The notes below the pieces were generated by a model. That model ran no database searches, was not told the DNA's origin, and was given only the letters and a program-made list of their open reading frames with translations. Both the position numbers and the translations under genes were made by a program. A DNA stretch of 64,000 bases from a virus, in the IMG/VR virus record IMGVR_UViG_3300043397_000067, positions 1-64,000 of that record. One strand, given 5' to 3'. Below are positions 3,467-6,278 of the stretch, piece after piece. Numbering within the stretch: the first letter of the stretch is position 1; each line of letters opens with the position of its first letter.

Positions 3467-3499
3467 GTGACACACACAGCCTAAAAATGTGTGTAGAAT
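3467..3499 (+). promoter_or_regulatory. Candidate promoter for gene 3554-3838
   Basis: A -10-like TAGAAT lies at 3494-3499, preceded by TGTGTG. The best -35-like hexamer, GTGACA (3467-3472), is 21 bases away, too far for a good sigma-70 spacer. The same core, GTGTAGAATT followed by CAAT, recurs at 3892 after the tandem terminators, which makes a phage promoter motif more likely than chance. The start point is unproven. Confidence 0.45.
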
Positions 3500-3508
3500 T
3501 CAATCCCA

Positions 3509-3838: not shown

Positions 3839-3856
3839 ACCCTGCTAAGGGTTTTT
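3837..3856 (+). terminator. Terminator 1 of a tandem pair
   Basis: AAACCCT and AGGGTTT form a 7-bp stem with loop GCTA, followed by TT. The 5' arm overlaps the stop codon of the gene just before it. Confidence 0.65.
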
Positions 3857-3862
3857 CCTAAG

Positions 3863-3889
3863 AAAACGGGGGCTTCGGTCCCCGTTTTT
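3863..3889 (+). terminator. Terminator 2 of a tandem pair
   Basis: AAAACGGGG and CCCCGTTTT pair over a loop containing CTTCGG, followed by a T-run. This is a textbook Rho-independent terminator and isolates the upstream gene from the RNA region that follows. Confidence 0.85.
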
Positions 3890-3891
3890 GC

Positions 3892-3900
3892 GTGTAGAAT
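3892..3900 (+). promoter_or_regulatory. Candidate promoter of the ncRNA/tRNA unit
   Basis: GTGTAGAAT with TTCAATTC after it repeats the core of the candidate promoter at 3494. It sits just after two terminators and before the structured RNA, exactly where a promoter is needed for the RNA and tRNA to be made. The upstream region is the terminator T-run and no consensus -35 is visible. Confidence 0.4.
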
Positions 3901-3957
3901 TTCAATTCCTGTCATATTTTCAGTGGTATGTGTACACGTTAGGTCTATTAGCTTAGG

Positions 3958-4173
3958 CTGCAAACTGGGTAACCGGGAGATATACAGCCACTATCAGAAC
4001 GGCGCTGTGGAAAGACACAGTAAATGCGGACCAATTAGGCTGTAGCACGGGGAAGCTCTGTCATGTAGCACGAGGCGTATGCCGGTAGACTCATGCAGAA
4101 TGTCGGGAACAGCCAAGCTAGTATGAAAACACTAGCCCGTTCTGATAGTGGTAAAGAAAATAGCGGTTTGCGG
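3958..4173 (+). ncRNA. Candidate structured non-coding RNA
   Basis: No protein frame of quality is present here, but the RNA can fold deeply. CTGCAAAC (3958-3965) pairs with GTTTGCGG (4166-4173) as an outer stem with one G-U. Inside it, 3988-4002 and 4137-4151 form a perfect 15-bp helix, CCACTATCAGAACGG with its complement. That helix closes a multi-branch loop with three arms: CTGTG/CACAG (4005-4020), GGCTGT/ACAGCC (4038-4114, holding a further hairpin ACGGGG-AAG-CTCTGT) and GCTAGT/ACTAGC (4117-4136). An 8-base segment of the 3' strand (4146-4153) can instead pair with 4209-4216, right beside the tRNA, so the RNA may switch. It matches no RNA class I know. Confidence 0.6.
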
Positions 4174-4217
4174 GTCAAGTAGAGGGTCACCCCGCAGTGA
4201 GCAAGTAATACCACTAC

Positions 4218-4293
4218 GTATCGGTAGCTCAACTGGCAGAGCAGTGGCCTCCAAAGCCGAAGGTTGAGGGTTCGACTCCTTCCCGGTACGCCA
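4218..4293 (+). tRNA. tRNA-Trp (CCA anticodon)
   Basis: The 76-base cloverleaf has acceptor stem GTATCGG/CCGGTAC (one G-U), D-stem GCTC/GAGC, anticodon loop CTCCAAA giving CCA, T-stem GAGGG/CCTTC with loop TTCGACT, discriminator G and an encoded CCA end. The anticodon stem is weak: its outer pair is G-A and the next is U-G. It lies between the structured RNA and long hairpins and 0.76 kb upstream of rtcB. Confidence 0.92.
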
Positions 4294-4444
4294 GCTATAT
4301 CGTAGGCGCGTTAGGCGAAAGTAGGTTGAGTAGCTTAGCGTGCCTACGAGATAGCTAGCAACAGCGGTCGCATACACTTGGCACTTACTGGGTGCGTTTC
4401 CTCTAGTGTATGCGTTTCCTGTACTTGCAGGTGCGCTAGCTATC
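4294..4444 (+). other. Structured spacer/leader after tRNA-Trp
   Basis: Hairpin A pairs 4294-4307 with 4342-4355 (14 positions, one mismatch, plus three more inner pairs). Hairpin B is a perfect 10-bp stem, CGCATACACT (4369-4378) with its complement at 4405-4414. An alternative 10-bp helix joins GATAGCTAGC (4350-4359) with GCTAGCTATC (4435-4444); it uses the 3' arm of hairpin A, so the two folds exclude each other. TGCGTTTCCT occurs twice (4393 and 4411). Possible roles are tRNA 3' processing signals or control of gene 4467. Confidence 0.5.
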
Positions 4445-4466
4445 TACCACCACTTTAAGGAGAGAT

Positions 4467-4913: not shown

Positions 4914-5052
4914 TAAGGTACTTGCGGGAGCTACTTGGGAACAATGTGCAGCTGAATATAACTGCACATTAGGCGCTATGTATCTACGTAAGCTAGTTAT
5001 CGTAGGTGCAGCCGCACGAAACCTTAAACCAGAGCAGGCACGTAAATTATGA
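4765..5052 (+). CDS. Small helix-turn-helix protein
   Basis: The C-terminal half holds a homeodomain-like helix-turn-helix: KEIIDKVLAGATWEQCAAEY, then NCTLGAMYLRKLVI. The start is uncertain. ATG 4765 has a strong SD (GAGGAAG) and gives 95 residues but overlaps the previous gene by 149 bases; ATG 4864 gives 62 residues that are all domain but has no good SD. The stop overlaps the rtcB start as TTATGA. A DNA-binding or terminase-small-like fold is possible; the role is unknown. Confidence 0.6.
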   Translation: MSYQAVFPKIAGTYLPEKPRERKSLTGTRSGYKMDYKHQTQKYPHKEIIDKVLAGATWEQCAAEYNCTLGAMYLRKLVIVGAAARNLKPEQARKL

Positions 5053-6278
5053 TAGTCATTCAAGAGCAAGGTAGCAGGCCAATTAAAGCATGGGTTGGAG
5101 AAAAACCCATGCCCGGAGCATCCTACGAAGATGTAGTGCTTAACGGGGCTACGGTGCCCGACATTGAAGATACTGCACTGCAGCAAGCCAAGAACCTTGC
5201 GCGGCTCCCCTTTATTGCAAAGAACGGTGTGGCTCTTATGCCAGACGTTCATGCAGGCGTAGGGTCTACCATCGGCAGCGTTATCGCTACACACAAAGCG
5301 ATTATCCCGGCAGCAGTAGGTGTTGACATTGGCTGCGGCATGTGCGCCGTCAAGACCAATCTCAAGGCCAGCCAACTGCCCGACTCCATGAAGGGTATCT
5401 TCGATGCTATTTCTAAGGCAGTACCAGTGGGCTTTAACCAGCACCAAGAGAACTCGAAGCAGTTTGCGGTGAACTCGTGGGACATGACAAACCTGCCAGC
5501 AGAAGTACGCACAGACAAGCTTCACACTAAAGCTGTAGCCCAGCTTGGTACTCTAGGTGGCGGCAACCACTTCATCGAGATATGCTTGGACGAGAACCAA
5601 GATGTGTGGGTTATGTTGCACAGCGGCTCTCGCGGCGTTGGCAATGTTATTGGAACTACGTTTATTGATAAAGCCAAGGAGCATATGGCCCGTAACTTTA
5701 TCGAACTACCAGACCCCAACCTTGCTTTTCTGCCAGAAGGCGACAAGCTATTTCAAGACTACATCAGCTGTATGTTATGGGCACAGCACTACGCTAAGAA
5801 CAACCGCAAGGTAATGCTTGAGAATGTGCTTAAGGTTTTGGCAGAACAAATCACGGACCTCAAGGTTACAGAGGAAGCTATTAACGTACACCACAACTAC
5901 GCCCAAAGGGAGAACCACTTTGGGCAGAACCTGTGGATTACGCGAAAAGGCGCTACTCGTGCAGGCAAGGGTGAGCTTGGCATCATCCCCGGCAGTATGG
6001 GCCAGAAGTCCTACATCGTTTGCGGCAAGGGTCACGTAGAGAGCTACTGTTCTTGCAGTCACGGCGCAGGCCGCTCGATGAGCCGCACAGAGGCTAAAAA
6101 GCGGTTCAGCTTGACTGACCTTGTTTCGCAGACGCAAGGCGTGGAGTGCCGCAAAGACGAAGGCGTACTGGACGAGATTCCGGGTGCCTACAAGGACATA
6201 GATGTGGTGATGGAAAACCAGAAAGACTTGGTTGAAGTGGTACACACCCTCAAGCAAGTCATGTGCATTAAGGGGTAG
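5049..6278 (+). CDS. rtcB: RNA-splicing ligase RtcB
   Basis: RtcB joins RNA 2',3'-cyclic phosphate or 3'-phosphate ends to 5'-OH ends using GTP and Mn2+. The 409 residues match the family length, and all five active-site residues are in place: Cys96 in DIGCGM, His174 in GGGNHF, His191 in LHSGSRG, His281/282 in VHHNYAQREN, and the guanylylated His338 in SHGAGRSMSR. It overlaps the HTH gene by 4 bases. Known phage RNA-repair enzymes undo tRNA cleavage by host anticodon nucleases; here the ligase lies close to a phage tRNA and a structured RNA, which suggests RNA repair or maturation of those RNAs, an inference. The archease partner (Archease/MTH1598 fold) is not visible in the window. Confidence 0.95.
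   Translation: MIVIQEQGSRPIKAWVGEKPMPGASYEDVVLNGATVPDIEDTALQQAKNLARLPFIAKNGVALMPDVHAGVGSTIGSVIATHKAIIPAAVGVDIGCGMCAVKTNLKASQLPDSMKGIFDAISKAVPVGFNQHQENSKQFAVNSWDMTNLPAEVRTDKLHTKAVAQLGTLGGGNHFIEICLDENQDVWVMLHSGSRGVGNVIGTTFIDKAKEHMARNFIELPDPNLAFLPEGDKLFQDYISCMLWAQHYAKNNRKVMLENVLKVLAEQITDLKVTEEAINVHHNYAQRENHFGQNLWITRKGATRAGKGELGIIPGSMGQKSYIVCGKGHVESYCSCSHGAGRSMSRTEAKKRFSLTDLVSQTQGVECRKDEGVLDEIPGAYKDIDVVMENQKDLVEVVHTLKQVMCIKG

What the first reader, a model, noticed from the sequence alone, without database searches (positions are those of the whole stretch)
3892..4293. Possible new structured RNA beside a phage tRNA and RtcB
After two terminators and a promoter-like motif, a 15-bp perfect helix encloses three arms, followed within 70 bases by tRNA-Trp and 0.76 kb later by the RNA ligase RtcB. 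A segment at the tRNA boundary (4209-4216) can break the main helix. The neighbourhood looks like a dedicated RNA unit: a decoy for anticodon nucleases, a tRNA processing partner or an RtcB substrate.
Basis: partly seen in the sequence, partly recalled or inferred. Interest (0 to 1): 0.78.

Follow-up and report, generated by a model that had tools for sequence, protein, structure and literature searches.

The report
Divergent member of unlisted phage RNA family
A phage carries, directly in front of a tRNA gene and near an RNA-repair enzyme, a structured RNA that looks like a distant member of a large phage RNA family missing from Rfam 15, whose outer frame is conserved while its middle differs from phage to phage; it may help phages withstand host attack on RNA, but that function is not yet shown.

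Summary
The fold is real. The 15-bp helix (3988-4002/4137-4151) is the only perfect 15-bp inverted repeat with arms at most 250 nt apart in 64 kb, and the core folds far better than shuffles (z -5.4). Nothing in Rfam 15 matches except the tRNA. Frame: clamp helix P2, 5' hairpin (loop GAAAGCAGA), variable interior, 3' hairpin (loop GTAGCG) flush against P2. Helices covary strongly; interiors are mostly unrelated. The window is probably a divergent member: a model built from members with unrelated P2s, without the window, ranks 3994-4145 first in 64 kb (24.7 bits, E 9.5e-4; next 9.3), though only with filters off. One viral contig (L173) repeats the order module - tRNAs - RtcB. Function is inferred: probably a trans-acting RNA, perhaps a tRNA-like bait in an RNA-defence/repair cassette. 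No transcript or binding data were available.

The parts
3863..3888 (+). intrinsic-terminator-like hairpin (AAAACGGGG...CCCCGTTTT) isolating the RNA from the upstream gene; a second one (CCCTGCTAAGGGTTTTT) at 3840-3858
   Evidence: sequence; 9-bp perfect repeat; not in the scan list
3892..3901 (+). weak promoter-like GTGTAGAATT (-10-like TAGAAT); start of transcript unknown
   Evidence: exact copies only at 3491 and 3892; not passed by sigma70 scan
3922..3929 (+). P1 5' strand (AGTGGTAT), pairs with 4208-4215 and closes the whole 5' RNA
   Evidence: I13; pairing probability 0.72-0.98 in 3908-4217 only
3988..4002 (+). P2 5' strand, main helix
4004..4021 (+). 5' hairpin A, GCTGTG-GAAAGA-CACAGT, one nt after P2; family counterpart GGCGTG-GAAAGCAGA-CACGC
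   Evidence: pairs covary
4038..4114 (+). central arm / variable interior (GGCTGT...ACAGCC)
   Evidence: no sequence counterpart seen in other members
4117..4136 (+). 3' hairpin C, GCTAGT...ACTAGC, flush against P2 3' strand
4137..4151 (+). P2 3' strand
4168..4197 (+). extra hairpin between P2 and tRNA (TTGCGGG...CCCGCAG)
4208..4215 (+).
4218..4293 (+). tRNA-Trp (CCA), CCA end encoded
4290..4445 (+). second structured stretch after the tRNA (long hairpin about 4293-4356, hairpin 4369-4414, alternative closing arm 4435-4445)
   Evidence: z -3.8
5049..6278 (+). RtcB RNA ligase, 409 aa
   Evidence: PF01139 E 9.7e-127

Best explanation
Window 3908-4217 is a structured noncoding RNA whose core (3988-4151) is a divergent member of a widespread phage RNA family that Rfam does not hold. 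Frame: clamp helix P2; one unpaired base; hairpin A; an exchangeable interior; hairpin C flush on P2. The topology resembles a tRNA cloverleaf (P2 like the acceptor stem, A like the D arm, C like the T arm). Proposed mechanism, inferred: the RNA is co-transcribed with tRNA-Trp, RNase P cleavage at 4217/4218 frees its 3' end, P1 and P2 protect its ends, and it acts in trans, most likely as a tRNA-like bait or inhibitor for a host RNA-targeting factor. tRNA-Trp replaces and RtcB re-seals damaged RNAs. The exchangeable interior would follow the changing host target. Shown: fold, family, covariation, layout. Inferred: transcription, processing, trans action and target. My confidence is about 0.85 that it is a real structured RNA of this family and about 0.3 for the bait function; the number given here is a compromise for the whole statement.
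For: Fold z -5.4. P2 pattern scan returned 9 viral loci, all sharing the 5' hairpin start. Model R2 built without the window scores it 40.4 bits (partly circular, since P2 was the search key). Model R3, built from members with unrelated P2s, ranks 3994-4145 first in 64 kb, 24.7 bits, E 9.5e-4, next 9.3; in seven other tRNA-bearing loci the top is 16.4 on a tRNA-like RNA. Covariation: 17 of 24 pairs double-changed, 0/500 shuffles; 97.6% of cells paired, covariation 0.42 vs 0.10 shuffled; P2 check without selection on pairing: 55/55 with >=4 of 6 variable pairs vs 25% when strands of different members are matched. 13 unrelated interiors in 19 modules with near-identical frames, and no similarity among 40 other interiors: consistent with exchange under diversifying pressure. 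tRNAs within 500 nt are all same-strand, 19/19, expected number 5.2. L173: module - 3 tRNAs - RtcB. No conserved protein neighbour and mixed strands of neighbouring genes, so probably not a cis leader. Phage tRNAs and ligases are thought to counter tRNA nucleases (PMC10264068).
Against: R3 misses the window with default filters. The window's hairpin C loop lacks the GTAGCG motif, and its 3' flank shows no sequence similarity; the 5' flank does (48 of 20,000 shuffles as good). Interiors are no more stable than shuffles (mean z -0.1), so a defined bait fold there is not shown. RtcB is near very few members. No transcript, protein partner or phenotype is known; no close relative of the window's locus was found in which to test conservation directly.
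Confidence: 0.42

Rival explanations
1. The RNA is a structural, RNA-only or ribosome-binding phage RNA in the manner of GOLLD and ROOL, whose role is scaffolding or packaging rather than baiting a nuclease.
For: GOLLD and ROOL are also phage/prophage RNAs of unknown function beside tRNA islands, GOLLD sometimes with tRNAs in its linker (PMC12286853). Brucella/Ochrobactrum prophages carry arrays of several structured modules with tRNAs.
Against: No Rfam match to either; core is 150-160 nt, well below the >800 nt of many GOLLD RNAs; interiors are not conserved, unlike a cage-forming fold; single modules occur alone (Persinger).
Confidence: 0.17
2. It is a cis-acting element: an RNA antiterminator like HK022 put, or a leader that sets tRNA processing and downstream expression.
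For: Sits just after terminator-like hairpins and before tRNA and genes; in PotUPM1 and Orimi01 modules lie beside the repressor; -10-like boxes 4-6 nt upstream of P2 in some members.
Against: In 33 of 83 loci the next gene is on the other strand; in Persinger and rhizobial arrays a terminator follows closely; a variable interior is not expected for an RNA polymerase ligand.
Confidence: 0.15
3. The window RNA is a real but independent structured RNA; the shared P2 sequence and frame with the prophage family is a coincidence of my search.
For: About two chance hits were expected for the 20-base pattern (own estimate); both flanking hairpins occur by chance in 1.4% of segments; the R3 hit needs filters off.
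Against: R3, independent of P2 sequence, ranks it first at E 9.5e-4 on one strand only; 5' flank similarity 48/20,000; same tRNA-abutting context and, in L173, same RtcB order.
Confidence: 0.13
4. It is an RtcB substrate or a Y-RNA-like partner of RNA repair.
For: RtcB 0.76 kb downstream of the tRNA; Salmonella rsr-yrlBA-rtcBA encodes tRNA-like Y RNAs beside RtcB, and YrlA has been proposed to inhibit the anticodon nuclease (PMC7790460).
Against: No Ro60/TROVE gene found in the phage record; no Y RNA or self-cleaving ribozyme match in Rfam; RtcB rarely accompanies the family.
Confidence: 0.08

Closest known systems
GOLLD and ROOL RNAs (Rfam; PMC12286853)
   Same: Large structured RNAs of unknown function in phages/prophages, often beside tRNAs; GOLLD can hold tRNAs in its linker.
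   Different: No covariance-model match; much smaller; conserved frame with exchangeable interior; also occurs as single modules.
YrlA / bacterial Y RNAs of rsr-yrlBA-rtcBA operons (PMC7790460)
   Same: Noncoding RNA with tRNA-like folding next to RtcB.
   Different: No Ro60 gene found in the record, no Rfam match, tRNA arms only topologically similar.
Phage tRNA plus RNA ligase counter-defence (T4 ligases, PMC10264068)
   Same: tRNA gene and RNA ligase in one phage neighbourhood.
   Different: Adds a separate structured RNA; the ligase is RtcB, not Rnl1/Rnl2; no nuclease target known.
HK022 put RNA (PMC9378689, abstract only)
   Same: Short phage RNA with helices, near transcript start in some members.
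   Different: Gene orientation and adjacent terminators do not fit a cis antiterminator.

Membership tests
new P2-hairpin A-interior-hairpin C family (this work) | clamp helix P2 with complementary strands, usually ending CGG/CCG | tested here: met
   15 bp perfect in the window; R3 aligns it at 3994-4145
new P2-hairpin A-interior-hairpin C family (this work) | hairpin A one nt after P2, loop GAAAG-type | tested here: met
   GCTGTG-GAAAGA-CACAGT at 4004-4021; covarying pairs
new P2-hairpin A-interior-hairpin C family (this work) | hairpin C flush on P2 with loop GTAGCG | tested here: inconclusive
   hairpin present and flush, but the loop motif is missing and the sequence is unlike the family
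new P2-hairpin A-interior-hairpin C family (this work) | significant score against a model built without it | tested here: met
   R3 24.7 bits, E 9.5e-4, top of 64 kb with filters off; missed with default filters; R2 40.4 bits, partly circular
GOLLD (Rfam) | match to the family covariance model | tested here: not met
   cmscan at gathering threshold and at E<=10: only tRNA and noise
ROOL (Rfam) | match to the family covariance model | tested here: not met
Y RNA / YrlA with Ro60 | TROVE (Ro60) protein encoded with it | tested here: not met
   PF05731 not found in the 80-kb record; a control genome rings; the record may be a fragment
tRNA | canonical cloverleaf recognised by ARAGORN/Rfam at 3988-4151 | tested here: not met
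   only 4218-4293 is called in this region
HK022 put antiterminator | cis leader of a same-strand operon lowering termination | tested here: inconclusive
   33 of 83 family loci are followed by an opposite-strand gene; activity not testable
RtcB substrate | 2',3'-cyclic phosphate / 5'-OH ends and ligation | not testable with these tools
   needs biochemistry

The most novel reading that the evidence does not exclude
A phage-wide family of cassette RNAs: a conserved tRNA-like clamp presents an interior that is swapped wholesale between phages, forming an RNA counterpart of variable anti-defence protein genes, sometimes packed with tRNAs and RtcB as one RNA bait-and-repair cassette.
Probability: 0.25. 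Interest if true: 0.92.

Novelty: new variant of a known kind. Interest (0 to 1): 0.74.

Why it matters
A covariation-supported RNA family in about 110 or more viral contigs and several named, culturable phages is absent from Rfam 15. Its constant frame with an exchangeable interior is unusual for a structured RNA and points to an arms race. Because members sit in laboratory-accessible Pseudomonas and Ochrobactrum phages, function can be tested directly. The window adds a link to tRNA and RtcB, which bears on how phages survive host RNA-targeting defences.

Tried and rejected
Homologues by neighbouring proteins (none; RtcB gave relatives, but R1 found no such RNA there). DNA BLAST of the region in phages and plasmids found only tRNA and noise. 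Terminase relatives at 99% exist but as fragments without this locus. Genome contigs pattern scan: two true hits (L129, L130), five false hits in what look like coding regions. Ro60/Y RNA: rejected. Switch at 4209-4216: rejected. Antisense function of the interior within the phage: longest complement 11 nt, shuffles 10-14. Conserved protein partner: none. R2 hit L141 rejected as repetitive coding-like DNA; L143 and L134 weak. First count of structure pairs failed on length. The central 3-bp pairs in R2 and R3 are placeholders to let the model skip the interior, not claimed structure. Lists of members may hold near-duplicates; counts are of loci, not independent events. HK022 put was compared from a paper's abstract only.

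Full report
1. Observation. The 15-bp perfect helix is at 3988-4002/4137-4151; no other perfect 15-bp inverted repeat with a loop up to 250 nt exists in the 64-kb window. The enclosed 164 nt fold at -67 kcal/mol against a shuffled mean of -45 (z -5.4). The whole 3908-4217 stretch has z -3.3; its reverse complement also folds well (z -4.6), as expected for long helices. tRNA-Trp follows at 4218 and RtcB at 5049. Rfam 15 finds only the two tRNAs of the window, and only noise besides the tRNA at E <= 10 in the region.

2. The proposed switch. Segment 4209-4216 can pair with 4146-4153, but forcing this costs about 7 kcal/mol and its ensemble probability is ~0. In the RNA ending at the tRNA's 5' side, 4208-4215 instead pairs with 3922-3929 (P1, probability 0.72-0.98), closing the entire RNA 2 nt before the tRNA. 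When tRNA or downstream sequence is included, predicted P1 falls to ~0.1 or 0, so P1 is plausible mainly after processing. There is no sigma70 promoter match at the supposed site.

3. Finding the family. Protein neighbours gave no syntenic relatives and DNA BLAST found little but tRNA. Scanning IMG/VR for both P2 strands with a 120-150 nt gap returned nine loci that share one frame: ATCAGAACGGC, a hairpin with a GAAAGC loop, a variable centre, and in most a hairpin flush on CCGTTCTGAT. A one-ended pattern gave more, and a genome scan gave two true hits, Brucella haematophila L129 and a Rhizobiales isolate L130.

4. Covariation. In the CM alignment of 21 members, window included, 17 of 24 pairs show changes on both sides and no shuffle of 500 reaches any of the five measures; three of the 24 are placeholder pairs, two of which are among the 17, so 15 of 21 real pairs. 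That alignment is fitted to the model and holds one false member (L141). In 24 members of the 3'-motif set, chosen with at least 7 of 9 P2 pairs, P2 positions 3-6 are always paired, with three or four pair types each; covariation 0.42 against 0.10. To remove that selection I tested all 55 loci with an exact 5' hairpin: every one has at least 4 of the 6 variable P2 pairs, against 25% when strands of different members are matched.

5. Is the window a member? Model R2, from 14 prophage modules without the window, gives 40.4 bits, but P2 was the search key. The 5' flank of the window, not used in the search, resembles L079 better than 99.76% of shuffles; the 3' flank does not resemble the family. 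Hairpins on both sides occur by chance in 1.4% of segments. Model R3, from members with unrelated P2s, misses the window with speed filters but without filters ranks 3994-4145 first in 64 kb at 24.7 bits, E 9.5e-4, next 9.3, on the + strand. A control of 78 kb, mostly tRNA-bearing, peaks at 16.4 bits on a tRNA-like RNA and otherwise 9.9. I conclude probable membership, divergent.

6. Context. Among 136 family loci, 19 tRNAs lie within 500 nt, all on the module's strand, against 5.2 expected. RtcB was found in one, L173: module, tRNA-Pro, tRNA-Gln, tRNA-Arg, RtcB, on one strand, opposite to what look like structural genes, the same order as the window. Ochrobactrum phage POI1126 has tRNA-Met, two other modules, this module, then tRNA-Gln, all unannotated, between capsid and portal genes. 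Pseudomonas phage Persinger has a single module followed by an intrinsic-terminator-like hairpin; PotUPM1 and Orimi01 have one near the repressor. No protein family accompanies the module, and the strands of neighbouring genes are mixed, which favours action in trans.

7. Variable interior. In 19 modules with near-identical frames there are 13 unrelated interiors; 40 members of the wider set share none. The interiors are not more stable than shuffles (mean z -0.1), so they are probably not defined by a strong fold of their own. In the near-identical frames this pattern suggests replacement by recombination rather than drift.

8. Mechanism. The frame has the order of a tRNA cloverleaf, and an RNA in RtcB-bearing contig L039 combines a similar 5' hairpin with a canonical T arm. 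With tRNA and RtcB beside it in the window and L173, a tRNA-like bait in an RNA-defence cassette is the best guess, by analogy with phage tRNAs and ligases that are thought to offset tRNA nucleases (PMC10264068) and the proposal that tRNA-like YrlA inhibits an anticodon nuclease (PMC7790460). This step is inference. GOLLD/ROOL-like scaffolding (PMC12286853) and a cis leader remain possible.

9. Novelty. No Rfam 15 family matches the window or the family loci tested. My ten searches of the open paper library found no description, but broad phage RNA surveys in journals not held could include it; I could not check.

Noticed in passing
L077, L079, L083, L093, L119, L129, L130, L131 (up to about 500 nt upstream of each module): Rhizobial prophages carry arrays of several different structured modules (closing stems such as ATGCGA/TCGCAT); many begin with a GAGGCAACGCCTC hairpin, end in an intrinsic-terminator-like hairpin, and modules are shuffled between phages.
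   Followed up: partly
L129 6975-7056, L130, L077 2662-2754: tRNA-like genes with normal-looking acceptor, D and T arms but a long altered anticodon arm (ARAGORN tRNA-???) inside these arrays.
   Followed up: no
L160 (interior of module), also L153, L180, L112, L082: Module interiors holding T-arm-like GGTTCGATTCC; in L160 a T arm is followed by acceptor- and D-arm-like sequence, as in a permuted tRNA.
   Followed up: no
L039 7954-8080: tRNA-like RNA with a hairpin-A-like arm and a canonical T arm in an RtcB-bearing contig; R3 16.4 bits.
   Followed up: partly
window 4290-4466: Second strong structure directly after tRNA-Trp (z -3.8) with competing copies of a GCTAGCTAT-like arm at 4290, 4351 and 4435, ending near the ribosome site of the next gene.
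   Followed up: partly
window 3491-3500 and 3892-3901: GTGTAGAATT occurs exactly twice in the window, each ahead of a gene or RNA start; possible phage promoter element, weak statistics.
   Followed up: no
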